Below are positions 17,922 through 43,756 of a stretch of DNA of 64,000 nucleotides, piece after piece; the stretch's first letter is position 1, and every line of letters starts with the position of its first letter. Location: NCBI RefSeq assembly GCF_030036535.1, contig NZ_CP080388.1, forward strand, positions 1,478,501 to 1,542,500. The letters are read 5' to 3'. The position numbers and the translations under genes were made by a program. The notes below the pieces were generated by a model. The model did not search any database, was not told where the DNA came from, and saw only the letters and a list, made by a program, of their open reading frames with translations. This DNA is from Agrobacterium cucumeris. GTDB taxonomy: Bacteria; Pseudomonadota; Alphaproteobacteria; Rhizobiales; Rhizobiaceae.

Positions 17922-18422
17922 TCATGCCGCCTTTTTCTGAGCCGCAGCATTGATCGAGGTCTTGGCGAGCGAGGTCAGCGCATCGTCGGTCTTGGTTTCT
18001 TCCTTGAGCGTGGCATCCAGCAGTGAAACCGCCTTGGTGTGGCCAAGCTTTTCCGCCCAGGCTTTCAGCGTGCCGTAACGGGCGATTTCATAATGCTCGA
18101 CGGCCTGGGCCGACGAAATAAGACCGGCATCGAGCGCCGCAGTGCCCTTGAACTCGTCAATGATCTCTTCGCCTTCGGCGATAATGCCCTGGATGGCTTC
18201 GCAGGTCTTGCCCTGCGCCCGCTTGCCGATGACTTCGAACACTTCCTGCAGGCGCTCCACGTGCCCCTGCGTCTCTTCCTTGTGTTTTTCAAACGCCTGT
18301 TTCAGCTTCGGGTCTGTCGCTGCCCGGGCCATTTTCGGCAGGGCTTTGAGGATCTGCCTTTCGGCGTAATAGATATCCTTCAGCGTGTCGTAAAACAGGT
18401 CGTCGAGTTTCTTCTCGGCCAT
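17922..18422 (-). CDS. ferritin-like YciE/DUF892 family protein
   Basis: A 166-residue all-helical protein. The pattern 'LDDLFYDTLKDIYYAERQIL', the Glu/His-rich helices ('EKHKEETQGHVERLQEVF', 'AVEHYEIARYGTLKAWAEKL') and 'LLDATLKEETKTDDAL' match the ferritin-like YciE family, which has a diiron-type four-helix bundle. Its biochemical role is not settled; relatives are induced by stress and stationary phase. The ATG at 18422 is chosen over one at 18437 because AGAAGGA precedes it. A near-consensus general-stress promoter (18480-18504) lies about 60 bp upstream. Confidence 0.87.
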   Translation of the reverse strand: MAEKKLDDLFYDTLKDIYYAERQILKALPKMARAATDPKLKQAFEKHKEETQGHVERLQEVFEVIGKRAQGKTCEAIQGIIAEGEEIIDEFKGTAALDAGLISSAQAVEHYEIARYGTLKAWAEKLGHTKAVSLLDATLKEETKTDDALTSLAKTSINAAAQKKAA

Positions 18423-18479
18423 TGTTCCTTCTCCCATGGTATGAAAATGCAGGATGTGCGCCCATGCGCACGGGAGGCA

Positions 18480-18504
18480 AACCTTTCGCCGCCCCTATGG
18501 TTCC
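18480..18504 (-). promoter_or_regulatory. possible EcfG-type promoter (imperfect) of the YciE-like gene
   Basis: On the minus strand GGAAC (18504-18500), a 16-base spacer and GGTT (18483-18480) match the general-stress consensus except for one -10 base. Next to it, 18510-18523 is a perfect 14-bp palindrome CGTTGCGCGCAACG in the same divergent region. Confidence 0.45.
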
Positions 18505-18596
18505 GGCTCCGTTGCGCGCAACGTTTATATTGCCGCGCGGAACCAACCGGCCTTCCCGAACTTACTGGTGATGAAATTTCGGGAGGAGACGCGACC

Positions 18597-19082
18597 ATGC
18601 CCCAGAGCCTTGCAGAAGAATTTTCCATGAATGTTTCCATGCCTTTCGAGGTGCTGCTGGTGCGCGTGTTTGGCGCGGTCATTCTATGCGGCCTGATCGG
18701 TCTGGAGCGGGAATTTCACAAGAATACCGCCGGTCTGCGCACCAACATGCTGATCGGCCTTGCCGCCGTCACCTTCTGTGTCATCACCATCCACATGATG
18801 GAGACGATGGCGGAAGGTCATGAGGCCGCACGGCTCGATCCCATCCGGCTGGTGGAGGCCGTGACGGCGGGCATCGCCTTTCTCGCGGCGGGTGTGGTCG
18901 TTTATACCAAGGGCGATGTCAAAGGCCTGACGACGGGGGCGAGCATGTGGCTTTCGGCCGCGATCGGCCTCTCTGCCGGGCTCGGCATGTGGCCGCTTGC
19001 GCTGTTAGCCTCCGGCGTCGGCATTATCATTCTCTGGACGCTTCGCCGCATGCAGGTGGCCGCCGGTATCAAGGAAGACTGA
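18597..19082 (+). CDS. MgtC/SapB-family membrane protein
   Basis: A 161-residue inner-membrane protein with about four hydrophobic helices. It has the MgtC core 'LLVRVFGAVILCGLIGLERE' and 'TAGLRTNMLIGLAA' (with the conserved R-T-N/H-x-L-x-G pattern), and 'LTTGASMWLSAAIG', which corresponds to the family's T-A-A-x-x-W segment. MgtC proteins modulate ATP synthase or Mg2+ homeostasis in other bacteria; the C-terminal ACT-like domain of longer family members is absent here. Start at 18597 behind GGGAGGAG. It is transcribed away from the YciE gene and converges on the FAD oxidoreductase gene. Confidence 0.87.
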   Translation: MPQSLAEEFSMNVSMPFEVLLVRVFGAVILCGLIGLEREFHKNTAGLRTNMLIGLAAVTFCVITIHMMETMAEGHEAARLDPIRLVEAVTAGIAFLAAGVVVYTKGDVKGLTTGASMWLSAAIGLSAGLGMWPLALLASGVGIIILWTLRRMQVAAGIKED

Positions 19083-19089
19083 CCGGGCA

Positions 19090-20316
19090 TCAACCGAAGC
19101 GGAAAAGATCGGCGTCGGGGTCCTTGCCGCCATTAACGGCGGCGGCGACGATTTCGGCGGCGATCTGGCTGAAGGTGATGCCGTTGCCGCCAAAACCCAT
19201 GACGGCATAGATATTCTTCATGCCGGGAACTGCGCCGATCAGCGGCAGGCCCGTGGTGGTGGTGCCAAACGCCGCTGCCCAGCGATATTCCGGTTCGCCG
19301 ATATCGACGCCGAGCAGTTTTTCGATCTTGCTACGGATAATCTTCGTTTTAGAGGCCAGCTTGCGCTCCGACTGGAAGGAGGTAGGGTTTTCCTCATCTT
19401 CGCCGCCGGCAATCATGCGTCCGTTTCGGTCGGTGCGCAGATAAAGATAGGGGTCGGAAGCCTCCCAGACGATGTGGTTCTCCAGCCAGTCCGGCAGCTC
19501 AAGTCCTTCCCTGCTCGCCAGGGCCCAGGTGGAAATGATCTGGTGTTGCGGACTTTCAAGCATTTTCAGGAATTGATATCCGGTGCAGAAGACGACATTG
19601 CGGGCAGACAGGATTTTGCCCTCAGCCGTCGCAAGGACCACCTCGTCACCGAGATTTCTAAGATCGGTAATTTCAAGCTGTGAGACAATTTCAGCGCCTG
19701 CACCCGCCGTGTGGCGCAACAGGCCGGCTGTCAGCTGCGCGGGGTTGGCGGAGGCCGAGATGTCGCTGAGAATGGCGGCGGTCCGCTCCAGGCCATATTG
19801 TTCTTTCAGTTCCGCAGCACTGAGGAACCTGGCCTCGATGCCGGCCTCCCCGCGCGCGGCCGCTTCCGCCTTCAGCGCACGCGACCCCATTTCATCTCCG
19901 GCAAGGTAAAGTGCCTGCTTGCGCGCCATGCTGCAGGAGATGCCAAGCGACGTGACGATTTCTTCGAGACGCAAGACGGCGCGGGCCGAGCGCTGCCATG
20001 CCCTGTCGGCGGCATCCTTGCCGATCATCTTTCTGAGTTCCGTCAGCGGCGTGTCGATCTCGTGCTGGATCATCGCGGTGCTGGCCACGCTGCTGCCCAT
20101 CACCGGTTCTCTCTTGTCGATGATCAGCATGGATTGCCCCGGGCGATGCAGCGCGTGCGACACCAGCGCGCCGCTTATGCCAGCACCGACGACGATCGTG
20201 TCGTAACGGTCGGATTTTGGCGTCGTTCCGCTGCGGATGCCGATGCGTGGGCTATCGGCCCAGAGCGGCTTTGAATCCCTGAGATCGCGTTCTTTCGTCA
20301 GTTTGGATGTCGGCAT
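19090..20316 (-). CDS. FAD-dependent oxidoreductase, DAO (glycine/D-amino-acid oxidase-like) family
   Basis: A 408-residue flavoprotein. 'DTIVVGAGISGALVSHAL' is the N-terminal FAD-binding motif (about residues 40-58), and the C-terminal 'NIYAVMGFGGNGITFSQIAA' is the DAO-family FAD-closing segment. The middle ('YLYLRTDRNGRMIAGGEDEE') is typical of gamma-glutamylputrescine oxidase-like enzymes. The amine or amino-acid substrate is unknown. The start at 20316 avoids overlap with the upstream gene, which ends at 20336; longer in-frame starts would overlap it. Last gene of the operon from the EcfG promoter at 21637-21661, hence probably a stress-induced enzyme. Confidence 0.85.
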   Translation of the reverse strand: MPTSKLTKERDLRDSKPLWADSPRIGIRSGTTPKSDRYDTIVVGAGISGALVSHALHRPGQSMLIIDKREPVMGSSVASTAMIQHEIDTPLTELRKMIGKDAADRAWQRSARAVLRLEEIVTSLGISCSMARKQALYLAGDEMGSRALKAEAAARGEAGIEARFLSAAELKEQYGLERTAAILSDISASANPAQLTAGLLRHTAGAGAEIVSQLEITDLRNLGDEVVLATAEGKILSARNVVFCTGYQFLKMLESPQHQIISTWALASREGLELPDWLENHIVWEASDPYLYLRTDRNGRMIAGGEDEENPTSFQSERKLASKTKIIRSKIEKLLGVDIGEPEYRWAAAFGTTTTGLPLIGAVPGMKNIYAVMGFGGNGITFSQIAAEIVAAAVNGGKDPDADLFRFG

Positions 20317-20335
20317 GAAATAGTCCTGAAAGGTC

Positions 20336-20746
20336 TCATGGCTCGGTATAGCCGGATACGTTGAGATTGAGTGTTCCGCGGCGGGGATCGTTGCGGAAGA
20401 AAAGCGTGCCGGCGTCCTTTGATTCCGAGGCGACATAATCGAATGTCACATCAGCGCTTTCCTGCATCGTGCCGTCTTGCTGCAGCTCGCCGCGCACTTG
20501 CACCTGCGCTGCCGTCGTCATCGAGAGATTGCGGATATCGAACTTCACGCGGTACGGAACGGACTGCCCCTCCACGCTGGTGACGGCTATTTCGAAACGG
20601 GCATCCTCCGGCTGGTAACGATAGATATCGTAGGCGATCCAGCCGAGCATGGCCGCAACAAGAAGCGTGCAGATCGCGCCTGTTACCCATTCTATCCAGT
20701 GGGGATCGGAACTTTCGGTGTGTTTGTTACCCTTCGATGTCGTCAT
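20336..20746 (-). CDS. TIGR02588-family membrane-anchored protein of unknown function
   Basis: A 136-residue protein. Residues 1-17 are hydrophilic, about 18-40 form one transmembrane helix ('WVTGAICTLLVAAMLGWIAY'), and 45-136 are a soluble beta-rich domain ('VPYRVKFDIRNLSMTTAAQV', 'RRGTLNLNVSGYTEP') resembling an immunoglobulin-like fold. Topology (cytoplasmic N-terminus, periplasmic domain) is inferred. I recognise it as the TIGR02588 family, which regularly sits beside TIGR02587; neither has a known function. It follows that gene by 7 bp. Confidence 0.8.
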   Translation of the reverse strand: MTTSKGNKHTESSDPHWIEWVTGAICTLLVAAMLGWIAYDIYRYQPEDARFEIAVTSVEGQSVPYRVKFDIRNLSMTTAAQVQVRGELQQDGTMQESADVTFDYVASESKDAGTLFFRNDPRRGTLNLNVSGYTEP

Positions 20747-20753
20747 CTTGTCC

Positions 20754-21614
20754 TCACAGGATCAATCGGGCGGAGGCCGCGCCGATCGAAGCCGGGACGC
20801 CCAGAATGACGGCGGCGCTCATGATCTGCGACAGCGACGTATGGTCGAGACGCTCGAAGGTCCAGAGCGTGTAGATGCTGATGGCGATGGCGATGACATA
20901 GCCCGGCAGGGTAAAACGGATGAAGGATTGCCACCAATGCTGCCCATCATGCAGCTGGTGAGAGCCCTTGAAATGAAGCGCATAGACAAAGCCGTGCATG
21001 ATGGCGATCGACAGTAGGCAAAGCGCCAGAATGTGATAGGGCGTCACCTTGTAGGCGATCAGGATCATCTCTTCCGTCGGCGCGACATTGAGGTTGAGAA
21101 AGAGCGCTCCGACCATCATCATGAACAGTTCGTGCAGATAACCGGTCTTGCCGGAATATTCGCCTTCCTCTTCGTCCTGCGCATCCGAATGCTGGCCGAG
21201 CTGACTGCGGCCGAGCAGCGCGCCGATGCTCGCCGGAACGGATTGCAGCGCAATCTTTGTGATGATGGTGGAGACGGTCATCTGGTCGTTCAGGATACCG
21301 AACAACAGCAGCACAGCGGCGCTGACGGCTATGCCGAGCCCATAGGCCGTGATCGCGTCACGCAGCGCCTGGCCCCGGGAATGAATATTCTCAAAGCCGA
21401 TGCGGCGGGCGAGAAGCAGCAGCAGCGGCAGGTTGAGGATGCAGAGCAGCAGCAGCCGCCACGGATTGATGTAAAGACCGAGAAACCACATTTCCATGGT
21501 CATCAGCATTGGCAGTGCAAACAGCAGGGCACCCGCCGTGCCACGTGCCAGACCGGTCAGAAACTGTCTGACCTCATCGTTATCGGTGTCTTTTCGATTG
21601 ATTGCTGCCGCCAT
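20754..21614 (-). CDS. TIGR02587-family integral membrane protein of unknown function
   Basis: A 286-residue inner-membrane protein with about seven hydrophobic segments. Conserved-looking parts include 'LTGLARGTAGALLFALPMLM', 'TMEMWFLGLYINPWRLLLLC' and 'NLNVAPTEEMILIAY' in the C-terminal half; a hydrophilic stretch with 'SQLGQHSDAQDEEEGEYSGK' lies between helices. The start at 21614 is supported by GAGGGG and by a perfect EcfG promoter only 23 bp upstream; the longer frame to 21755 would read through that promoter. First gene of a three-gene leftward operon with TIGR02588 and an FAD oxidoreductase. Confidence 0.82.
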   Translation of the reverse strand: MAAAINRKDTDNDEVRQFLTGLARGTAGALLFALPMLMTMEMWFLGLYINPWRLLLLCILNLPLLLLLARRIGFENIHSRGQALRDAITAYGLGIAVSAAVLLLFGILNDQMTVSTIITKIALQSVPASIGALLGRSQLGQHSDAQDEEEGEYSGKTGYLHELFMMMVGALFLNLNVAPTEEMILIAYKVTPYHILALCLLSIAIMHGFVYALHFKGSHQLHDGQHWWQSFIRFTLPGYVIAIAISIYTLWTFERLDHTSLSQIMSAAVILGVPASIGAASARLIL

Positions 21615-21636
21615 GCCGCCCCTCACATGGGGGAAT

Positions 21637-21661
21637 AACGCAATGGTGTTTTTCCGGTTCC
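21637..21661 (-). promoter_or_regulatory. EcfG-type general-stress promoter
   Basis: Perfect match on the minus strand: GGAAC (21661-21657), 16-base spacer, CGTT (21640-21637). It ends 23 bp before the TIGR02587 start and should drive the three-gene operon. Confidence 0.8.
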
Positions 21662-21666
21662 GCCGT

Positions 21667-22107
21667 TTATTTGGCGGGATCGATGAGGGCGATACCGAAT
21701 TCCGGGCGATAGCTGCGCCGCAATTCCGCGGGTGTTTCGCGGATGACCACTTCAAGCGTTGGTCGCACCACGCCCTTCAAAAAATGGCCGCCTTTTGTAG
21801 ACCCGTCGGCAAAACCCAGAACCACATGCAGATGCGGATTGGGGTCATCGTTTTCATCAAGGGTAATGTCGCCGAGCAGGCTCAGAACCTCGCTCTGCTG
21901 GGTAACCGGTATTTCCTTGTACTCCCGCGTCGAAAGATCGAAAAAGGCGAGAGTTGCCGTTGCAAAGGCACCGATGGCCGTCACCGAAGCGGCGTTGATG
22001 TTCTCCGTGCCCGCAAAACGGCGGATGGCCTCGAAGGCTTCTTCCTCCGGCTCGATGACGAGAATGAAAGTGCGCTCCGCGCCGCTCGCCAGCAATCTGC
22101 TTTTCAT
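21667..22107 (-). CDS. PPC/DUF296 domain protein (AT-hook-protein-like domain)
   Basis: A 146-residue protein made of a single PPC (plant and prokaryote conserved, DUF296) domain. The pattern 'AERTFILVIEPEEEAFEAI', 'NINAASVTAIGAFATATLAF', 'GDITLDENDDPNPHLHVVLG' and 'GGHFLKGVVRPTLEVVIRE' fits the family, including the clustered histidines ('HLHV', 'GGH') that bind metal in some bacterial members. Prokaryotic members have no AT-hook and their role is unknown. It lies after a hairpin in the same direction as the DJ-1/PfpI gene. Confidence 0.85.
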   Translation of the reverse strand: MKSRLLASGAERTFILVIEPEEEAFEAIRRFAGTENINAASVTAIGAFATATLAFFDLSTREYKEIPVTQQSEVLSLLGDITLDENDDPNPHLHVVLGFADGSTKGGHFLKGVVRPTLEVVIRETPAELRRSYRPEFGIALIDPAK

Positions 22108-22121
22108 GGGTCTCTCCCAAT

Positions 22122-22148
22122 AAAAGTGCCGCCGGAAACCGGCGGCAC
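22122..22148 (-). terminator. intrinsic terminator or attenuator between the PfpI-like and PPC genes
   Basis: A perfect 10-bp stem (22126-22135 with 22139-22148) and AAA/TTT loop, followed on the minus strand by TTTT (complement of 22122-22125). It lies only 19 bp before the PPC-domain gene, so that gene is expressed by read-through or from a promoter inside the preceding gene. Confidence 0.75.
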
Positions 22149-22164
22149 GGGGTGGTAAGTGCCT

Positions 22165-22725
22165 TCATGCGGCACGGCGCTCGTGACGGCCTTCCTCAAC
22201 CTCTTCGACGATTTTCGCAACGAAGGCATCGAGGTCTTCGGGACTGCGGGAGGTGATGATGCCCTTGTCCGTCACCACCTTTTCGTCCTTCCAATTGGCG
22301 CCGGCATTTTTCAGGTCTGTCTTGATCGACCAGTAAGAGGTGGCGTCACGACCGCGCAGGGCGTCCGCTTCCACCAGAAGCCAGGGCGCATGGCAGATGG
22401 CGGCCACCACCTTGCCGGATTTGACGAAATCGCGAACCACGCGCATCGCATCCTCATCATGGCGCAGAATATCCGGGTTGATCTGGCCGCCCGGAAGAAC
22501 CAGCGCGTCGAAATCATCCGATTTGACAGTCTTGGCGGAAAGATCCACCGCGATGCTGTCGCCCCAGTTCTTTTCATCCCAGCTCTTGATTTCGCCCGTT
22601 TTGATCGAAGCGATCTTTACATCGGCACCTCTGGCCTTCAGCTGGTCGTAGGGCACCCTGAGTTCCGAGCGCTCATAGCCGTCGGTTGCGAGAATGACGA
22701 TTTTTGCAGCGTTGATTGAAGTCAT
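22165..22725 (-). CDS. DJ-1/PfpI-family glyoxalase or protease-like stress protein
   Basis: A 186-residue class I glutamine-amidotransferase-like protein. The nucleophile-elbow cysteine is C111 in 'AAICHAPW', with H112 after it; 'ALVLPGGQINPDILR' carries the conserved PGG oxyanion segment, and a conserved Glu (E19) is present in 'DGYERSEL'. This matches the PfpI/YhbO/YraA subgroup, reported as protein/nucleotide deglycase or glyoxalase and generally stress-induced. Start supported by GGAGAC. It follows the 73-residue gene by 18 bp and shares its EcfG promoter. Confidence 0.9.
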   Translation of the reverse strand: MTSINAAKIVILATDGYERSELRVPYDQLKARGADVKIASIKTGEIKSWDEKNWGDSIAVDLSAKTVKSDDFDALVLPGGQINPDILRHDEDAMRVVRDFVKSGKVVAAICHAPWLLVEADALRGRDATSYWSIKTDLKNAGANWKDEKVVTDKGIITSRSPEDLDAFVAKIVEEVEEGRHERRAA

Positions 22726-22743: not shown

Positions 22744-22965
22744 TCAGTCGTCCTTGTCCGAATTTACGGAAGGCAGGAAAAACTCCACGTCCTTGCGGCG
22801 TTCGGCCTCGAGATTTTCGATGTACGTTTGCCAGAATGTCTCAGCGTCTGCCGGTTCCTGATCCCATTGGCGCACGAAGGTCTTGTTGTCGTCGATCATC
22901 ACCTGACGTGTGCCGCCAAGTCGCAGATATTCTTCCGCAAGTTTGCGCGTTTCGGTCTTTTCCAT
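22744..22965 (-). CDS. small hypothetical protein (73 aa)
   Basis: A 73-residue, highly charged soluble protein with no membrane segment or cysteine. 'RKLAEEYLRLGGTRQVMIDD' and 'AETFWQTYIENLEAERRKDV' predict two or three helices. I do not recognise a family with certainty; similar small proteins appear beside stress genes in rhizobia. The ATG at 22965 is preferred (AAGGAG 9 bases upstream); a longer frame from 23046 lacks such a site. It is the first gene downstream of the EcfG promoter at 23123-23147. Confidence 0.7.
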   Translation of the reverse strand: MEKTETRKLAEEYLRLGGTRQVMIDDNKTFVRQWDQEPADAETFWQTYIENLEAERRKDVEFFLPSVNSDKDD

Positions 22966-23122
22966 GTCGCAGCTCCTTGTGCGCGGAAAGTGGGGACGGA
23001 GGGACGCCGGATGGGTAAGAAGCTCGACTGCCGCTTCGTTGGCCACCGGGAGAAAACGGAAAAATCCCGATGTTCTTCGGCACCATCACGTCCGTTTGAC
23101 ACGGCGGCCCTCCTGCCAGAAC

Positions 23123-23147
23123 AACGTGAGCTTTCCGGTATGGTTCC
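23123..23147 (-). promoter_or_regulatory. EcfG-type general-stress promoter
   Basis: Perfect minus-strand match: GGAAC (23147-23143), 16-base spacer, CGTT (23126-23123). The first gene in its direction starts at 22965, leaving a leader of about 150 bases with no gene I can support. Confidence 0.75.
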
Positions 23148-23255
23148 GCAGTTTTTCGGGCGGTGTCTGTGCCGGGTGCAAATGTATCGTGCACAATTTT
23201 TATCGGAACAAACGGCCAAGTCGCGTTGTTTTACACCCGATGCAGGGGAGGCAGC

Positions 23256-24086
23256 ATGGCAGCCAGACAGAGCGACGGCGAACATTACGGTCATAACCAA
23301 GACAAGGGTTTCTGGTCGATCGACTTCGGCAACTCGCCCGTTGTCGGCACGGCCATTCATGACGGTCATTTCATTCGCCCGGAAGTGGCGGGGCTCATGG
23401 CTCTTTCACCTGAGCAGAGGCTGCGCGAGGAAGACCCCTTTACCGGCGAGATGATTTCGGGGCTGACAAGTCGCCTCGTCGTTCATCATTCTCGCTTCGA
23501 AATCGATCTCAACCGCGCTGCCGATCAGGCGATCTACCTGAAGCCCGAACAATCCTGGGGGCTTGAGGTCTGGAACGAGGAGCCGGCGGAACTAGCGCTT
23601 CGGCAATCGCTCGATTTCCACGACGATTATTATGCGATGCTGGAGGCAGTTCTGTCGACGGTGGAGCGACGGCATGGTGCTTTCGTGGTGCTGGACGTGC
23701 ACAGCTATAATCATCGCCGGCAGGGCGCTGCCGCGCCTGCGACGGCGCAGGCGGAAGCGCCCGATATCAATATCGGTACATTTTCCATGGATCGCAGCCG
23801 CTGGAGCGATGTGGTCAGCGCTGTCGGTCATCATTTCGCGTCAGCGACCATCGGCGGTCGACGCCTTGATGTTCGCGAAAACGTGGCGTTTCAGGGCAAA
23901 GGGGAACAGACCCGCTTTATCCACGAACGCTTTGCCGAAAACGGCTGCGCGATCGCAATCGAGTTCAAGAAATTCTTTATGGATGAGTGGACGGGAAAGC
24001 CGGACACACGGGTGATATCCGATATCCGTGATACGATCGCTGCCCTTCAGCCGGTTCTCGAAAAATGCCTGGGGTCGCGGCGATGA
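23256..24086 (+). CDS. N-formylglutamate amidohydrolase-family protein
   Basis: A 276-residue zinc hydrolase of the N-formylglutamate amidohydrolase family. Family features visible are 'GRRLDVRENVAFQGKGEQTR', 'VVLDVHSYNHRRQG' with the D-x-H-S metal site, and the late 'AIAIEFKKFFMDEW' segment with the conserved Glu. In histidine degradation (HutG) the enzyme cleaves N-formylglutamate, but no hut genes are nearby; this copy is fused into an operon with a metallopeptidase and an ATP-grasp ligase, suggesting another amide or formyl substrate. The ATG follows GGGAGG. The stop overlaps the next start (ATGA). Confidence 0.85.
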   Translation: MAARQSDGEHYGHNQDKGFWSIDFGNSPVVGTAIHDGHFIRPEVAGLMALSPEQRLREEDPFTGEMISGLTSRLVVHHSRFEIDLNRAADQAIYLKPEQSWGLEVWNEEPAELALRQSLDFHDDYYAMLEAVLSTVERRHGAFVVLDVHSYNHRRQGAAAPATAQAEAPDINIGTFSMDRSRWSDVVSAVGHHFASATIGGRRLDVRENVAFQGKGEQTRFIHERFAENGCAIAIEFKKFFMDEWTGKPDTRVISDIRDTIAALQPVLEKCLGSRR

Positions 24087-25960
24087 GCGTTTCTTCGGCC
24101 CGCAGCGAGCCTTCTCCCATCGTCGACCTGGTGGATGATGTCGTCGCCTGCCTGAAGGGCGGCAAGGCTATCCGCCGGGATGTCGGAAAAAACGGCAGGC
24201 TGCACATCGACCGGCCGCTGCCATTCCTCTGCCTGCATCTGACGGGAGGTACGAAAGATCTTGCCGCGCGCGATATTGCCGCCGCCCATGCATCCTATCT
24301 CATCGCTTCCACCATTCAGGAGGCCGCGCCGCTGATCGAGGCTGTGGGCGCCGCCATGCTGCAGCGTTTCGGCGCCTTCATAGTCCTCGATATCGGTGAA
24401 CTGGAACACGATATTCTACTGGCCGACGACTCCCCCTTTCTGCCGCATTATGAGGTTTCCGTTTCAGCGACTTCAGAACCGGAAACGCAGAAAGCCCGCC
24501 GGGTCTTCATCAAGGCCGTCTGTGATGCCGAAGTGCGGTTTCGCACGCCGCGTATCACCCGGCCGGAGCCGGAAGCCGATCCGATCCTCAGGTTTCAGAA
24601 TACCGGTCTGGATTTTCCCTGCATCAGCGTGCGCTTCGCGCCGATCTATCGACAGCCGGAATCCGGTGCCGATTATCCCGGCCTGCGCGAAACGATGATT
24701 GCCGATCTTTTCGATGCGGGTTTGCAGGCCTTCTCGTCATTTTCCGCCGGTATGGATGCGCTGAAGGTCACCAGCCACCGGGCGCTTGGCCGCAAGGCCT
24801 TTGTCGATGCCGTCCGGCGTGCCGACCGCTCGGTGGATGAGATCGTTTCATCCTTCGATTTTCTTCTGTCGGTTACGCCGATCAATGCCCGCCGGGCCTT
24901 TGAGGAGTTTCGCGATGGCAGCTTTCAGTTTGCGCCACGCCTGCTTTACCGGCCGCTCGGCGTTGATGTCGAGGAGCAGAAACGCAAGCTCTATTCCGTC
25001 GTTTTCGATCATCTGGAAGACCCGGTGCTCTATCACCTCTACCGGGAGAAACAGCAGGAGATCGACCTGCAACTGACGATGCTTGCGAACCTGCATCATC
25101 GCACCTTCACCGATTTTTCACGCGCCCTCTATGGCGCCGTCGAACCCGCTCTTCTGACGCTGGCGCTTCGTGTGCTTGAGGATTGCCCACGCGCCCAGGA
25201 AAGCGGCGAAATCGCCATGGTGGACTGTTACGCGGTCGCCAGAAAATCGCGCGAGATGGTCGAGACCTATCTGGCGGAAGAGCCGGAATTCAAGGCTCGC
25301 GTCGAAATCCGCGACGACCTGCCGCCCGGCCTGATGGTGACGGGCGAGAAGCTCTTGATTTCCCGCCACACCGTCATGGAACAGCGCCGTGTCGAAGCAC
25401 TGCTGTCGCATGAGATCGGCGTGCATCTTCTTACCTATTTCAACGGTTCGTTTCAGGGCCTGCGGCTCTTCCGCACCGGCCTTTCCGGTTACGAGGGCGT
25501 GCAGGAAGGGCTGGCGGTGCTGGCGGAACATCTGGCCGGTGGCATGACGCGTGAGCGCCTGCGGCTGATTGCCGGCCGCGTCGTCGGCTGCGCCACCATG
25601 CTTGATGGCGCGACATTCGTTGAGACCTTCCGCATCATGACCCGTGATCACGGTTTCGACGAGGCAGGCGCCTTCAATATGGTGCTGCGCATCTATCGCG
25701 GCGGCGGCCTGTCGAAGGACGCCATTTATCTGCGCGGGCTGGCCGAGGTGCTGGAGCATCTGCGCAGGGGCGGGGCGCTTGATCCATTCTGGATGGGCAA
25801 GATCGCCGCTCAACATTTCCCGGTCATGCAGGAACTCGCCCTGCGCGGCCTTTTGCGTCCGCCGGGTGTCAGACCCGCATTTCTGCTGCCCGCCAAGGCC
25901 AATGAACGGCTGGAAAAAATACGGGCGGGATTATCCATTGCCGAACTGGCAACATTATAG
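24083..25960 (+). CDS. QEGLA-motif DUF1704 metallopeptidase (MATCAP/KIAA0895-like)
   Basis: A 625-residue soluble protein. The C-terminal half contains H443-E444-x-x-x-H448 ('LLSHEIGVHLLTYFNG') and the eponymous Q474-EGLA motif ('GYEGVQEGLAVLAEHL'), the signature of DUF1704 (TIGR02421, 'flavohemoglobin expression-modulating QEGLA motif protein'). Eukaryotic relatives (KIAA0895L/MATCAP) are zinc tyrosine carboxypeptidases that remove the C-terminal tyrosine of tubulin, so a carboxypeptidase-like activity is likely here (inference). The N-terminal 250 residues look like a separate, unassigned domain. The ATG at 24083 overlaps the previous stop by four bases. All putative metal ligands are intact. 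Confidence 0.85.
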   Translation: MSVSSARSEPSPIVDLVDDVVACLKGGKAIRRDVGKNGRLHIDRPLPFLCLHLTGGTKDLAARDIAAAHASYLIASTIQEAAPLIEAVGAAMLQRFGAFIVLDIGELEHDILLADDSPFLPHYEVSVSATSEPETQKARRVFIKAVCDAEVRFRTPRITRPEPEADPILRFQNTGLDFPCISVRFAPIYRQPESGADYPGLRETMIADLFDAGLQAFSSFSAGMDALKVTSHRALGRKAFVDAVRRADRSVDEIVSSFDFLLSVTPINARRAFEEFRDGSFQFAPRLLYRPLGVDVEEQKRKLYSVVFDHLEDPVLYHLYREKQQEIDLQLTMLANLHHRTFTDFSRALYGAVEPALLTLALRVLEDCPRAQESGEIAMVDCYAVARKSREMVETYLAEEPEFKARVEIRDDLPPGLMVTGEKLLISRHTVMEQRRVEALLSHEIGVHLLTYFNGSFQGLRLFRTGLSGYEGVQEGLAVLAEHLAGGMTRERLRLIAGRVVGCATMLDGATFVETFRIMTRDHGFDEAGAFNMVLRIYRGGGLSKDAIYLRGLAEVLEHLRRGGALDPFWMGKIAAQHFPVMQELALRGLLRPPGVRPAFLLPAKANERLEKIRAGLSIAELATL

Positions 25961-25970
25961 GAGGGGCTTC

Positions 25971-27017
25971 ATGCGTATCGCATTTTTCGTCAATTCAATC
26001 GAAACCGAGGGACCGAATTACGCCACCGGCCTGCTGGCCATGGCGGCGCTCAATCGCGGCCATGAGGTAGTCTACCTGACGCCCGGCGACTTCACTTTGC
26101 GCTCGGATGACAGCCTGACCATCCATGCCACCGTGCTGCCGAAGGCGAAAATCAAAAAGGGCGAGACGTTCCACACCACGCTTCAGGATAAGGCGCTGGA
26201 GCGGCGGACCATGGATATCGAGGAAATCGATGCACTGATGCTGCGCAACGACCCGTCGCTCGACCAGACGACGCGGCCGTGGGCGGTGCATGCCGGCATC
26301 CTGTTCGGGCGGCTTGCCGAACAGCGCGGCGTCGTGGTTCTGAACGATCCGGAAGGTCTGGCGCTCGCCCAGAACAAGCTCTATTTCCAGAGCTTTCCGG
26401 AAATCGTCCGGCCGACCACGATCATTTCGCGCAATGTCGATGAGATCCGCGCCTTTGCCGATGCGCATCCCAAGGGCGTCATCGTCAAGCCGCTGCAGGG
26501 TTCGGGCGGCAAGAACGTCTTCAAGATCGGTTCCAGCAAGGAAGCCAATCTCAACCAGATTTTCGAGGCGGTGAGCCTCGAGGGTTATCTGATCGCGCAG
26601 GCCTATCTGCCGGCCGCCAAGGACGGGGACATCCGCTTCTTCATGATGAATGGCCGACCGCTGATGCGGGACGGCAAATATGCCGCACTCCGCCGTGTGC
26701 CGGCGAAAGGCGATCTGCGCTCCAACATTCATGCCCAGGGCACGGCAGAAGCCGTGAAGGTGACGGACGACATCGTGGCGCTTGCCGAAATGATGCGGCC
26801 GAAGCTCGTGGAGGACGGCATGTTTCTGGTCGGGCTCGATATCGTCGGTGACAAGATACTGGAAGTGAATGTGTTTTCGCCCGGTGGCTTGTCGAATATC
26901 CTCGAACTCACCAATGTCGATTTCAGCGATACGATCATCGACGCGGTGGAAACCAAAGTCTCCATGCAGGCCGCATCGGGCGGGGCCCTCTCCAACCGGT
27001 TGCTCGCAACGCTTTGA
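25971..27017 (+). CDS. GshB-like ATP-grasp ligase
   Basis: A 348-residue ATP-grasp enzyme resembling prokaryotic glutathione synthetase. The N-terminal domain ('MRIAFFVNSIETEGPNYAT') is the pre-ATP-grasp fold; 'VIVKPLQGSGGKNVFKIG' is the nucleotide-binding loop, and 'FLVGLDIVGDKILEVNVFSP' contains the metal-binding D/E/N residues. These enzymes form an amide bond through an acyl phosphate. It lacks the glutathione-pathway neighbour gshA; instead it follows a hydrolase and a peptidase, with a strong AGGAGGGG site ten bases after the previous stop. It probably ligates an amino acid or peptide to an unknown acceptor. Canonical glutathione synthesis is the alternative. Confidence 0.85.
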   Translation: MRIAFFVNSIETEGPNYATGLLAMAALNRGHEVVYLTPGDFTLRSDDSLTIHATVLPKAKIKKGETFHTTLQDKALERRTMDIEEIDALMLRNDPSLDQTTRPWAVHAGILFGRLAEQRGVVVLNDPEGLALAQNKLYFQSFPEIVRPTTIISRNVDEIRAFADAHPKGVIVKPLQGSGGKNVFKIGSSKEANLNQIFEAVSLEGYLIAQAYLPAAKDGDIRFFMMNGRPLMRDGKYAALRRVPAKGDLRSNIHAQGTAEAVKVTDDIVALAEMMRPKLVEDGMFLVGLDIVGDKILEVNVFSPGGLSNILELTNVDFSDTIIDAVETKVSMQAASGGALSNRLLATL

Positions 27018-38986: not shown

Positions 38987-39556
38987 TCAGCGCGCCGTGG
39001 CAGCGGCGGTAACCGCGCTCATCTGCGCATCCGGACCGAACTCATTTTCGTTTTCGATACCCAGAAGCTCCTGCAGACGCAGTCTTGCGCGGCTGACACG
39101 GCTCTTGATCGTGCCGACAGGGCAACCGCAAATCTCAGCGGCTTCCTCATAGGCAAAGCCCGAGGCACCAATCAGCAGGATGGCTTCACGCTGGTCATCA
39201 GGCAGTTTTGCGAGTGCTGAGCGGAAATCCTGAAGGTCGACCGAACCGTGCTGCTCGGGCGGCACCGAGAGGCGCGAGGTATAGACCCCGTCCGTATCCT
39301 GCACCTCACGGCCGGATTTGCGGATCTGGCTGTAAAACTCGTTGCGCAGGATCGTCACCAGCCATGCCCGCATGTTGGTGCCGGGTTGGTAGCTGTCCTG
39401 TTTCGCCCAGGCCTTCATGATCGTGTCCTGCACGAGGTCGTCGGCACGGTCTCTCGAGCGGATGAGCGAAATGGCGAAGGCGCGCAGGTTCGGCAGCGCC
39501 GCCAGCATTTCCCGCTTGAAATTGTATTCTGTCTGCTCCGGCTCTTTCGCCATCAT
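38987..39556 (-). CDS. ecfG: EcfG-family general-stress RNA polymerase sigma factor
   Basis: A 189-residue ECF sigma factor. Region 2 ('ALPNLRAFAISLIRSRDRAD' ... 'LVQDTIMKAWAKQDSYQPGT') and region 4 ('LPDDQREAILLIGASGFAYE' ... 'GCPVGTIKSRVSRAR') are intact. Its pairing with nepR and divergent phyR identifies it as EcfG (RpoE2 in Sinorhizobium), the sigma factor of the alphaproteobacterial general stress response, which reads GGAAC-N16/17-CGTT promoters. The start overlaps the nepR stop (two consecutive ATG codons at 39554-39556 and 39551-39553; either may be used), so synthesis is coupled to its anti-sigma factor. Confidence 0.95.
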   Translation of the reverse strand: MMAKEPEQTEYNFKREMLAALPNLRAFAISLIRSRDRADDLVQDTIMKAWAKQDSYQPGTNMRAWLVTILRNEFYSQIRKSGREVQDTDGVYTSRLSVPPEQHGSVDLQDFRSALAKLPDDQREAILLIGASGFAYEEAAEICGCPVGTIKSRVSRARLRLQELLGIENENEFGPDAQMSAVTAAATAR

Positions 39557-39759
39557 TCCTCCGAAGCCTTTATTTTGGCTTTGCTTTCGGCTTCATCGAG
39601 TTTTTCGAGAAGATCGAGGAATTTGTCAGGGATGCCTTCATCCTGAACGGCATCGTAAAGCTCCCTGAGCTTGCGGGAAATCACCGCCCGCCCGGAATGT
39701 GGAACCTGAGGGGCGGCCGAATTGTCCGGCGAATCTTGGTCCGATTGAAACATGCTCAT
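39553..39759 (-). CDS. nepR: NepR-type anti-sigma factor
   Basis: A 68-residue protein. The conserved helix 'SRKLRELYDAVQDEGIPDKF' followed by 'LDLLEKLDE' is the NepR core that wraps around EcfG. Under non-stress conditions NepR sequesters EcfG; phosphorylated PhyR mimics the sigma factor and titrates NepR away. The N-terminal 25 and C-terminal 10 residues are polar and probably disordered, as in the family. Encoded directly upstream of and overlapping ecfG, opposite phyR. Confidence 0.95.
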   Translation of the reverse strand: MSMFQSDQDSPDNSAAPQVPHSGRAVISRKLRELYDAVQDEGIPDKFLDLLEKLDEAESKAKIKASEE

Positions 39760-39792
39760 AACGTCCGGTATTCCTTTTGTGTCGTGGCAAAT

Positions 39793-39817
39793 AATGCGTG
39801 GTGAAAAAAATAGTTCC
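39793..39817 (-). promoter_or_regulatory. possible EcfG-type promoter of nepR-ecfG (imperfect)
   Basis: On the minus strand GGAAC (39817-39813), a 16-base spacer and CATT (39796-39793): one mismatch from the -10 consensus. It lies 34 bp before the nepR start and would give positive feedback on the sigma factor. Confidence 0.5.
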
Positions 39818-39825
39818 GGCCCTCG

Positions 39826-39851
39826 GGAACTTTTTTTGCGATACGCACGTT
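39826..39851 (+). promoter_or_regulatory. EcfG-type promoter of phyR
   Basis: Perfect plus-strand match: GGAAC (39826-39830), 17-base spacer, CGTT (39848-39851), 46 bp before the phyR start. Autoactivation of phyR by EcfG is established in related species. Confidence 0.85.
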
Positions 39852-39897
39852 GCTATCTTGGGTTTGCGTTGCAAACCGCATAAACGGGGAGAATTCC

Positions 39898-40692
39898 ATG
39901 TCAGTTTCTACACGCATCGCACCGCACCTGCCATATCTGCGCAGGTTTGCGCGTGCCGTTTGCGGCTCACAATCCACGGGCGATGCCTATGTTGCGGCAA
40001 CACTCGAAGCTCTGATCGCCGATATCAGCATCTTCCCGCAGACAAGCAGCGATCGCGTTTCGCTCTATCAATTGTTCGTATCGATCTTTAGTTCCGTCAC
40101 GATCAATATTAAGGCGGATGAAAACCTGTCAGGATGGGAGAAGCGCGCTTCTGCGAACCTTTCTGCCGTGCCGCCGCTTGCCCGTCAGGCTTTCCTGCTG
40201 ACGACGGTCGAAGAGTTCACACCTTCGGAAGCCGCAGAGGTTCTGAGAGTGTCTGAAGACCAGGTCGGCAGGCTGATCGATGAGGCGGCTTCCGAAATCG
40301 CCCGCCAGGTCGCAACCGATATCATGATCATCGAGGACGAACCTCTGATCGCCATGGATATCGAACAGATGGTCACCGATCTCGGTCACCGCGTCACGGG
40401 TATTGCCCGCACGCATACCGAGGCGCTCGACCTTTTCCATCGCACGCAGCCGAAAATGATCCTTGCCGATATCCAGCTTGCAGACGGCAGCTCCGGTCTG
40501 GATGCGATGAAGGACATCCTGCAGATGACCACCCTCCCGGTGATCTTCATCACGGCTTTCCCCGAGCGTCTTTTGACGGGCGAGCGGCCTGAGCCGACCT
40601 TCCTTGTGACGAAACCTTTCAACCCGGACATGGTGAAAGCGCTTATCAGCCAGGCCCTGTTTTTCAACGAAAGCTCTCGCGTCGCGGCGTGA
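39898..40692 (+). CDS. phyR: PhyR, anti-anti-sigma response regulator
   Basis: A 264-residue protein with the diagnostic order of an N-terminal sigma-like domain (about 1-125, 'LPYLRRFARAVCGSQSTGDA' ... 'FTPSEAAEVLRVSEDQVGR') and a C-terminal receiver domain (about 140-260). The phosphorylated aspartate is D191 in 'MILADIQLADG', with acidic residues in 'IMIIEDEPLIAMD' and the conserved Lys in 'FLVTKPF'. When phosphorylated it binds NepR and frees EcfG. The ATG at 39898 follows GGGGAG. An EcfG promoter precedes it, and another follows its stop, driving the adjacent kinase. Confidence 0.96.
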   Translation: MSVSTRIAPHLPYLRRFARAVCGSQSTGDAYVAATLEALIADISIFPQTSSDRVSLYQLFVSIFSSVTINIKADENLSGWEKRASANLSAVPPLARQAFLLTTVEEFTPSEAAEVLRVSEDQVGRLIDEAASEIARQVATDIMIIEDEPLIAMDIEQMVTDLGHRVTGIARTHTEALDLFHRTQPKMILADIQLADGSSGLDAMKDILQMTTLPVIFITAFPERLLTGERPEPTFLVTKPFNPDMVKALISQALFFNESSRVAA

Positions 40693-42037: not shown

Positions 42038-43756
42038 TCAGTGTGCCGGGTCCGGCCGCTTCGGCGTGAAATACCGTATCGGCGCTTCCAGAGACCATTC
42101 GAAGCCGGTTTGCCGGTACTCCGTCGTCACATGTCCGCCGAATGCGCCTTCCGCATGTCGTTTGATGACGGTGGTGCCGAAACCCTTGCGGCTCGGCTCC
42201 TTTGCCGGTGGCCCGCCCGTCTCGGTCCAGAGCAGATGAAGCATTTGCCTACCGTCTTTTTCGAGCGGCTTCCAGCTGACGGTGATTTTCCCGAGCGGCG
42301 CCGAAAGCGCGCCATATTTAATGGAATTCGTGGTCAGCTCATGCACCACAAGCCCGAAATTCTGCGCCGCCTCCGGCGACAGCATGAAATCGTCGCCCGC
42401 CAGCACCACACGTTCCGATACGGTGCCGAAAACTTCGAGGTGGGTCTCGATCAGCTTGCGGATCGGCAGCCCCTGCCACTGAACTTCCGCGAGCGCCCGG
42501 ATCGACATGCCGAGACCGCGCAGGCGATGGTCGACCTCTTTCTGGAACTCCGGAATGCTTTTATTTTCCCGGCCCAATTGCCGTATCATCGCCTGAACCA
42601 GCGTCAGAATATTCTTGGAGCGGTGAACCAGTTCGTGCAGCAGCAATTGCAGCCGCTCTTCCGACTGGCTTCTATCGAAGGAAGCGTTGGAGAGTGCGAT
42701 GGCGACCTGATTGGCTTCCTTTATCTTGGTATCCACCGGCGCGACGATCTCGCCTTCGCCAATGCGCTCCGCCATATGGGTCAGATCGCGAATGGAGCTG
42801 CGCAATTGTCGGCCGACCAGATAGGCGCCGCCGATGGCGATCAGCACCAGCACAAGGCTGCCGATCATCATCTGCCGCCAGGTGTCGATCAGTGCCGCCT
42901 GGCTGGCGGCCAGCGGTCCCCACATCACCGTCTTCCATTGCCAGCCCGGCAATTGGGCATAGGCGTAGAGATTGCCCTTGCCGTCGAAGAAATTCCCACT
43001 GAAGGCCTGCATTTCCGACAATATTTCCGGGGTGACAAAGGGTTTCCCAACTTCGGCCTCATCCTGGGCGCTGGAAACGACAACCCGGTTGGTGCCGTCG
43101 ATGATGGCGACCGCCCAGTTGCGCGGCAGGTTTTCCGTGGGAATAAGCCGGCCAAGATCGCTGGCATTCTGCGTCAGGATCAGGGCGTCCCCGGCAAGGC
43201 CCAGCTCCGGGTCAAGCGGCATGGTGACGTTGAACACCCACTCATGGCTGGTGGAGCCGAAAAACAGATCCGAGACGGTGATGCGGCGGGATTCTATCGC
43301 CTTGGCCAGATTTGCCTCGGCCGGCACCTTGCCGAGAGGCTGGCCATAGGGCACCCGGGTATTGAGACGCTGCTGACCATCCTTGGCGGCGAGCAGGGCG
43401 TAGAGGCCCTCCTTCTTCAGGCTTTCGGCGACGCGACCCTGAAACGCTGCGAGATTGCCGCTCTCAAGCTCGGGAAACTGCGACAGCAGATTGAGCGAGG
43501 TGGCGACTTCCTGCAGGCGGCGATCGATGTTGCGACTGACGACCCGGACATCCTCGATGGTTTCCCTTTGCAGGTCGTCGCGTTTTTCGGCTTCGAGGCG
43601 CAACATCAGGTAGCCGACAAAAAGGATGAGCGGCAGGGTGATGACGGTTGCCATCACCACCAGATAGGTGCCGATTGAGGCGGTCGGGAAAAAATTCGCG
43701 CTGCGCCGACGTAAAGTCGAGATCATGTCTTTCAGTCTGTCGCCGGGTTGAGGCAT
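42038..43756 (-). CDS. transmembrane HWE/HisKA_2 sensor histidine kinase
   Basis: A 572-residue membrane sensor. One transmembrane helix near residues 28-50 ('IGTYLVVMATVITLPLILFV'), a periplasmic sensor of about 235 residues resembling a double-Cache domain, and a second helix near 285-305 ('QMMIGSLVLVLIAIGGAYLV') lead to a HAMP-like linker ('LTHMAERIGEGEIVAP') and the kinase core. H378 in 'ELVHRSKNILTLVQAM' is the phosphoacceptor, and 'VVHELTTNSIKYGALS' the N-box. No cognate response regulator is adjacent, so it may signal to PhyR from about 2 kb away (inference). Confidence 0.9.
   Translation of the reverse strand: MPQPGDRLKDMISTLRRRSANFFPTASIGTYLVVMATVITLPLILFVGYLMLRLEAEKRDDLQRETIEDVRVVSRNIDRRLQEVATSLNLLSQFPELESGNLAAFQGRVAESLKKEGLYALLAAKDGQQRLNTRVPYGQPLGKVPAEANLAKAIESRRITVSDLFFGSTSHEWVFNVTMPLDPELGLAGDALILTQNASDLGRLIPTENLPRNWAVAIIDGTNRVVVSSAQDEAEVGKPFVTPEILSEMQAFSGNFFDGKGNLYAYAQLPGWQWKTVMWGPLAASQAALIDTWRQMMIGSLVLVLIAIGGAYLVGRQLRSSIRDLTHMAERIGEGEIVAPVDTKIKEANQVAIALSNASFDRSQSEERLQLLLHELVHRSKNILTLVQAMIRQLGRENKSIPEFQKEVDHRLRGLGMSIRALAEVQWQGLPIRKLIETHLEVFGTVSERVVLAGDDFMLSPEAAQNFGLVVHELTTNSIKYGALSAPLGKITVSWKPLEKDGRQMLHLLWTETGGPPAKEPSRKGFGTTVIKRHAEGAFGGHVTTEYRQTGFEWSLEAPIRYFTPKRPDPAH

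What the first reader, a model, noticed from the sequence alone, without database searches (positions are those of the whole stretch)
23256..27017. Tightly coupled amidohydrolase - QEGLA metallopeptidase - ATP-grasp ligase operon: possible tag-writing and tag-erasing system
Three genes overlap or nearly touch (ATGA overlap, then a 10-bp gap with a strong ribosome binding site). The order is an N-formylglutamate-amidohydrolase-like zinc enzyme, a DUF1704 metallopeptidase with intact H443-E-x-x-x-H448 and QEGLA motifs, and a GshB-like ATP-grasp ligase. Eukaryotic DUF1704 relatives (MATCAP) remove the C-terminal tyrosine of tubulin, and ATP-grasp ligases of the tubulin-tyrosine-ligase kind add it, so ligase plus peptidase in one operon suggests a reversible amino-acid modification of a protein, peptide or metabolite. 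No hut genes and no gshA lie nearby, so histidine or ordinary glutathione metabolism is a poor explanation. Substrate and biology are unknown.
Basis: partly seen in the sequence, partly recalled or inferred. Interest (0 to 1): 0.75.

Follow-up and report, generated by a model that had tools for sequence, protein, structure and literature searches.

The report
Stress-linked amino-acid ligase and hydrolase operon
Three neighbouring genes, one for an enzyme of a kind that joins amino acids and two for enzymes of kinds that clip such bonds, travel together across bacteria, in rhizobia behind an apparent general-stress switch; what they act on is unknown.

Summary
In detail: FG (FGase family), QE (MATCAP/DUF1704) and GS (glutathione-synthetase-like ATP-grasp) form a tight operon and a conserved module. 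The order is kept in 69 of 69 loci found by homology to QE. In 398 genomes of the phylum, 15 of 16 GS genes lie beside a QE gene; the 16th is at a contig edge. Elsewhere FG is fused to QE. The window's genome has a separate true GshB. But 6 of 14 GS-bearing genomes have GshA and no other synthetase found, so there GS is the only candidate. New: (1) an EcfG-type general-stress promoter-like site precedes FG in 71 of 79 distinct upstream regions against 13 of 419 controls, and phyR-nepR-ecfG lies in the window; (2) QE has an FGase/carboxypeptidase-fold N-terminal domain without the active-site motifs that separate FG proteins keep; (3) rlo-like genes follow GS in two genomes of one genus. Best reading: a stress-induced cycle making and breaking the C-terminal amide of a small, probably gamma-glutamyl, peptide. 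Protein tagging stays possible.

The parts
23205..23230 (+). EcfG-type general-stress promoter-like site GGAAC-N17-TGTT
   Evidence: same spacing as the site before phyR in this window
23256..24086 (+). FG: FGase-family amidohydrolase of carboxypeptidase-like fold
   Evidence: PF05013 99 bits; model pLDDT 90.9, best fold 2q7s N-formylglutamate amidohydrolase, TM 0.73
24083..25960 (+). QE: N-terminal pseudo-FGase-like domain plus C-terminal MATCAP (DUF1704/TIGR02421) domain; the ORF list gives start 24065, the ATGA-overlap start 24083 is preferred
25971..27017 (+). GS: GshB-like ATP-grasp ligase, PRK12458 subfamily, not this genome's GshB
22744..22965 (-). 73-aa protein, divergent from the operon; possible associate, not an obligate part
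23120..23147 (-). EcfG-like site facing the small gene (window only, conservation not tested)
38987..39556 (-). ECF sigma factor beside nepR and phyR (EcfG by position)
   Evidence: NF009199 347 bits
39586..39687 (-). NepR anti-sigma domain
   Evidence: PF18557 58.5 bits at G000:C2:1518086-1518187
39898..40692 (+). PhyR response regulator / anti-anti-sigma factor, with EcfG-type site at 39826-39851
   Evidence: NF006623 386 bits; PF22029, PF22233

Best explanation
A stress-induced module that makes and unmakes one kind of amide bond, between an acyl carboxylate and a free alpha-amino acid. GS makes it with ATP. QE, a MATCAP-family carboxypeptidase, cleaves it; FG, whose fold relatives also release an amino acid from an acyl group, cleaves the same or the next bond. 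Most likely substrate: a gamma-glutamyl peptide such as gamma-Glu-Cys, to which GS adds a C-terminal residue that may not be glycine and QE takes it off again, i.e. remodelling of glutathione-like peptides under stress. FG is a separate gene in rhizobia and some other lineages, where QE keeps a dead FGase-like domain (perhaps a docking remnant), and is fused to QE in others. In Rhizobiales transcription is by the general-stress sigma factor EcfG. The logic is like RimK-RimB (ligase plus its own peptidase). Shown: gene linkage, families, folds, kept or lost motifs, promoter motif. Inferred: reactions, substrate, reversibility, EcfG-dependent transcription, stress role.
Confidence: 0.42

Rival explanations
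1. Accessory glutathione metabolism: GS is a glutathione synthetase, stress-induced in rhizobia and the only one in some lineages; FG and QE hydrolyse glutathione-related or N-acyl peptides.
For: NF009110 is named glutathione synthetase and the catalytic core is kept. In 6 of 14 GS genomes (G046, G077, G133, G149, G153, G213) GshA scores 684-863 bits over a cut-off of 463, while no GshB reaches its cut-off, the next best match after GS being 62.6 bits or less, and no eukaryotic-type synthetase was found.
Against: GS is below the two glutathione synthase equivalog cut-offs (202 of 299, 220 of 272 bits); outside the single GshB clade; acceptor-loop SPT to SPG; 8 of 14 GS genomes, the window's among them, keep a true GshB; constant linkage to two hydrolases.
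Confidence: 0.28
2. Protein tag writer/eraser: GS adds an amino acid to a protein C-terminus and QE removes it, parallel to tubulin tyrosination or RimK/RimB.
For: MATCAP fold of QE; human relatives process tubulin tails and deglutamylate (PMC10499314, title, start of abstract and passages); Rim and Rlo pair an ATP-grasp protein with a peptidase (PMC11957791, PMC12239564, passages); rlo-like genes beside GS in L161 and L170.
Against: GS has the GshB-type N-terminal domain (54.6 bits) and is below the RimK subfamily cut-off (79 of 143). No obligate partner protein found: the small neighbour is absent from 4 of 14 QE genomes. FG is left unexplained.
Confidence: 0.15
3. Purely catabolic or repair operon: QE and FG degrade damaged or N-acylated peptides and GS salvages products; no cycle.
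For: Two hydrolases, one FGase-like; an AstE-type gene lies beside QE in L160, where GS is missing.
Against: GS is the most constant partner of long QE, odd for a catabolic unit.
Confidence: 0.1

Closest known systems
RimABK (RimK ATP-grasp glutamate ligase, RimB retropepsin-like protease, RimA phosphodiesterase)
   Same: ATP-grasp ligase encoded with a dedicated peptidase; RimB acts on the glutamate tails that RimK makes (PMC11957791, PMC7343187, passages)
   Different: GS is GshB-like, below the RimK cut-off; the hydrolases are MATCAP and FGase, not a retropepsin
RloABC operon, linked to hypo-osmotic stress
   Same: ATP-grasp protein plus peptidase and a stress link (PMC12239564, passages); rlo-like genes are next to GS in L161 and L170
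   Different: Rlo peptidases are secreted retropepsins with a membrane transglutaminase-like partner
MATCAP/TMCP tubulin carboxypeptidases
   Same: QE has the MATCAP fold and the HExxxH and QEG motifs
   Different: Extra FGase-like domain; partner ligase is GshB-type, not tubulin tyrosine ligase (that comparison is recalled)
Glutathione synthetase GshB
   Same: Fold and ATP-grasp core; in six genomes GS may stand in for it
   Different: Separate from the GshB clade, acceptor-loop change, operon context
HutG N-formylglutamate deformylase
   Same: FGase superfamily of FG
   Different: 24 of 279 bits for the HutG equivalog

Membership tests
TIGR02421 / PF08014 MATCAP family (QE) | score over curated cut-off; HExxxH and QEG motifs | tested here: met
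   456.2 over 338.65 and 322.4 over 27 bits; invariant residues in 55 sequences
TIGR02421 / PF08014 MATCAP family (QE) | MATCAP fold | tested here: met
TIGR02421 / PF08014 MATCAP family (QE) | carboxypeptidase activity | not testable with these tools
   needs an assay
PF05013 FGase family (FG) | gathering cut-off, FGase fold, kept motifs | tested here: met
   99.2 over 28.9 bits; 2q7s TM 0.73; of 78 separate FG rows D-x-H-S/T-Y in 78, DLNR in 77, IHxG in 76
HutG N-formylglutamate deformylase | TIGR02017 equivalog cut-off | tested here: not met
   24.3 of 278.75 bits
Glutathione synthetase GshB (GS) | TIGR01380 / NF003573 equivalog cut-offs | tested here: not met
   202.5 of 299.05 and 220.3 of 272 bits
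Glutathione synthetase GshB (GS) | lies in the GshB clade | tested here: not met
   21 GshB rows one clade 100/98, GS outside it
Glutathione synthetase GshB (GS) | glutathione synthesis | not testable with these tools
   only candidate found in 6 of 14 GS genomes, redundant in 8
PRK12458 / NF009110 ligase subfamily (GS) | curated cut-off | tested here: met
   488.6 over 408 bits
RimK family ligases | TIGR00768 cut-off | tested here: not met
   79.2 of 143.4 bits
Rim/Rlo ligase-peptidase systems | retropepsin-like peptidase in the operon | tested here: not met
   the three genes are FGase, MATCAP and GshB-like
EcfG (general stress) regulon | GGAAC-N16/17-CGTT-type promoter | tested here: met
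   strict form 40/79, wider form 71/79, controls 5/419 and 13/419; the window's site has TGTT where the consensus (PMC3892343) has CGTT
EcfG (general stress) regulon | EcfG-dependent transcription | not testable with these tools

The most novel reading that the evidence does not exclude
A third, independently built class of reversible amino-acid tagging in bacteria: a GshB-like ligase writes and a MATCAP carboxypeptidase erases a C-terminal residue on a cellular protein under general or osmotic stress, a bacterial parallel of the tubulin tyrosination cycle that uses the same eraser family.
Probability: 0.15. Interest if true: 0.88.

Novelty: new variant of a known kind. Interest (0 to 1): 0.58.

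Why it matters
It gives a functional setting to two families for which I found no tested bacterial role (DUF1704/TIGR02421 and PRK12458; searches), links them in Rhizobiales to the general stress response, and offers a bacterial setting in which to ask what MATCAP carboxypeptidases do without tubulin. It also raises the question of how six genomes with GshA but no recognised GshB finish glutathione, or whether they make something else. Three clean deletions and one ligase assay would decide.

Tried and rejected
Sole glutathione synthetase: rejected for the window's genome, not for six other genomes. Histidine (hut) catabolism: HutG equivalog not met. NAGGN osmolyte synthesis: not pursued. The small neighbour as sole substrate: rejected; present in 10 of 14 QE genomes and 9 of 137 others of the family, and by coordinates next to the operon in 1 of those 10 (G000); the association (hypergeometric 6e-8) ignores phylogeny. 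Single-sequence PDB searches for QE and FG found nothing, the FG profile only two chance antibody hits. gshB2/meliloti literature search: none. In print: searches for QEGLA, DUF1704, 'flavohemoglobin expression-modulating' and TIGR02421/PRK12458 listed no study of the operon; only CC-licensed PMC papers are held. I found no source for the family name 'flavohemoglobin expression-modulating'.

Rows dropped or doubled: one search left out L001, L002, L003-L014 and L023. Searches counted identical upstream sequences once and left out L020 and L021. Of 52 non-own TIGR02421 rows, 40 regions were fetched. The FG, QE and GS sets hold 74 rows, 73 distinct, and L157 repeats the genome of L095; the 89 GS rows count L020 twice. 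The group of 80 includes L160 and L164, where no separate FG was seen. The FG profile was contaminated by the Photobacterium fusion, so FG scores on QE proteins are not used. The FG-QE profile match is inflated because that alignment holds fused FG domains; one search is the clean test and is weak. In one search a strict IHxGH pattern was met by only 3 of 7 fused domains.
Full report
What is there. On the + strand three genes form one unit: FG 23256-24086, QE 24083-25960 (ATGA overlap) and GS 25971-27017, with GGAGGGG before GS. FG is an FGase-family protein (PF05013, 99 bits), QE a MATCAP/DUF1704 protein (PF08014 322 bits; TIGR02421 456 bits, cut-off 338.65), GS a member of the PRK12458 subfamily (488 bits, cut-off 408) below the cut-offs of two glutathione synthase equivalogs and of the RimK subfamily.

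Conservation. All 69 loci found in the named genome collection by homology to QE carry FG, QE and GS in that order with gaps of at most 15 and 26 bases as extrapolated from the matches; the titles name Agrobacterium, Rhizobium, Pararhizobium, Mesorhizobium, Shinella, Devosia, Phyllobacterium, Ensifer and others. In an even draw of 398 genomes of the phylum, 47 have a TIGR02421 match and 14 have PRK12458 over its cut-off. Of the 16 GS genes in those 14 genomes, 15 lie directly beside a QE gene (two of these QE genes are cut by a contig end); the last starts 48 bases from a contig end. GS scores (436-488 bits) stand far above the next match (241). I fetched 40 of the 52 non-own QE loci. In 13 of the 40 a GS gene lies beside QE; 12 of these QE reading frames have 627 codons or more and one is cut. 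One long QE (L160) lacks GS and has an AstE/aspartoacylase-type gene beside it. The other 26, of 384-549 aa and one of 702 aa (L158), have no GS and no separate FG match in the stretch. Within its own genus QE was found in 25 of 25 genomes and in none of 16 genomes of other families of the order; in 151 genomes of the own family, in 14. Breaks exist: FG is interrupted in S. medicae WSM419 (L018; two matching pieces about 1.9 kb apart), and QE matches in pieces in L028, L106 and L109.

Is GS a glutathione synthetase? In the window's genome a separate GshB scores 403 bits on TIGR01380 (cut-off 299), GS 202. In a tree of 49 ligases the 21 GshB form one supported clade; GS falls outside it in two lineages that match the two architectures, the branching order between them and GshB being less certain (92/85). 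GS keeps the ATP-grasp core shared with GshB, but the GshB loop S-P-T is S-P-G in 88 of 89 GS rows (one gap) and T in 21 of 21 GshB; RimK structures aligned also read SPG there. This suggests another acceptor amino acid without naming it. Against this, only 8 of the 14 GS-bearing genomes have a GshB over the cut-off. The other six (G046, G077, G133, G149, G153, G213; three of them at least 99% complete) have a plant-type GshA at 684-863 bits (cut-off 463), no other TIGR01380 match above 62.6 bits and no eukaryotic-type synthetase. In those lineages GS is the only candidate found for the second step of glutathione synthesis.

Stress control. A GGAAC-N17-TGTT site starts 51 bases before FG. The R. 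etli EcfG motif is GGAAC-N16-CGTT (PMC3892343, passages). Within 150 bases upstream of FG, the strict pattern GGAAC-N15-19-[CT]GTT occurs in 40 of 79 distinct sequences, against 47 of 4740 random stretches and 5 of 419 upstream regions of other ORFs; the wider GGAAC-N16-18-[AG]TT, chosen after viewing sequences, in 71 of 79 against 85 of 4740 and 13 of 419. Related sequences are not independent, but the spacer diverges while the ends stay. The same window holds an ECF sigma gene (38987-39556), nepR (39586-39687) and phyR (39898-40692) with its own site. Passages of a P. damselae transcriptome list a gene annotated gshB 38-fold and the next locus tag, the QEGLA protein, 27-fold higher at 1% NaCl, with RimK 52-fold (PMC10308900); that this gshB is GS is inferred from the tags and from the order in L020. 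HdfR-like LysR genes lie near 9 of 14 GS-bearing loci of this set (L020, the query, included) and 0 of 28 GS-less ones; of two scanned, L020 passes the HdfR cut-off and L161 does not. In L161 and L170, two genomes of one genus, genes like rloA and rloC follow GS; the L161 RloA- and RloB-like proteins score below their NCBIfam cut-offs, and RloB was not looked for in L170. Rlo proteases are needed for hypo-osmotic survival in Pseudomonas aeruginosa (PMC12239564, passages).

Reading. Both hydrolase families are of kinds that release a free amino acid from an acyl group, and ATP-grasp ligases of the GshB/RimK kind make just such bonds. The simplest account of so constant a trio is one bond, made by GS and broken by QE and FG, under stress control. 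It works like RimK-RimB and Rlo but is not a member of either, because the peptidase is of another family. The GshB-type N-terminal domain and the six GshA-only genomes favour a gamma-glutamyl peptide; the MATCAP relationship keeps a protein tail possible. I put the cycle on a small peptide at 0.42, plain accessory glutathione metabolism at 0.28, the protein tag at 0.15, and a purely catabolic role at 0.1.

Limits. No activity, substrate or expression data for the window's organism, whose name is not given (its QE is 97-99% identical to records titled Agrobacterium tumefaciens and Rhizobium rhizogenes). Literature claims come from passages of open papers only.

Noticed in passing
window 38987-40692: The general-stress locus (ECF sigma, nepR, phyR) lies about 12 kb from the operon; a gene at 42038-43756 (-) matches histidine kinase families below their cut-offs.
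   Followed up: partly
window 22744-22965 (-): A 73-aa protein without a Pfam match, divergent beside the operon in Agrobacterium loci and in the same direction before FG in Sinorhizobium (L018, L019); found in 10 of 14 QE genomes and 9 of 137 others of the family, mostly not adjacent.
   Followed up: partly
G046, G077, G133, G149, G153, G213: Genomes with a strong plant-type GshA but no GshB over cut-off and no eukaryotic-type synthetase; GS is the only candidate found.
   Followed up: partly
L144 726-1646, L180 3043-3948, L150 3745-4653: RimK or RimK-family ligase genes near short QE genes (L144, L180, one genus) and beside GS (L150).
   Followed up: no
L163 11174-11895, L164 9536-9838: Small proteins with signal-peptide-like starts and a shared C-x-x-[WY]-A-x-E-D-G motif, by eye, near the operon.
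   Followed up: no
L160 7158-10110: A long QE gene beside an AstE/aspartoacylase-type gene, without FG or GS.
   Followed up: partly
L018 5298-7944: FG in S. medicae WSM419 is interrupted: two matching pieces about 1.9 kb apart, QE and GS still present.
   Followed up: partly
window 17922-22725: DUF892, DUF2391, PCC-domain and DJ-1/PfpI genes just upstream, a stress-like cluster; EcfG-like sites there not tested for conservation.
   Followed up: no
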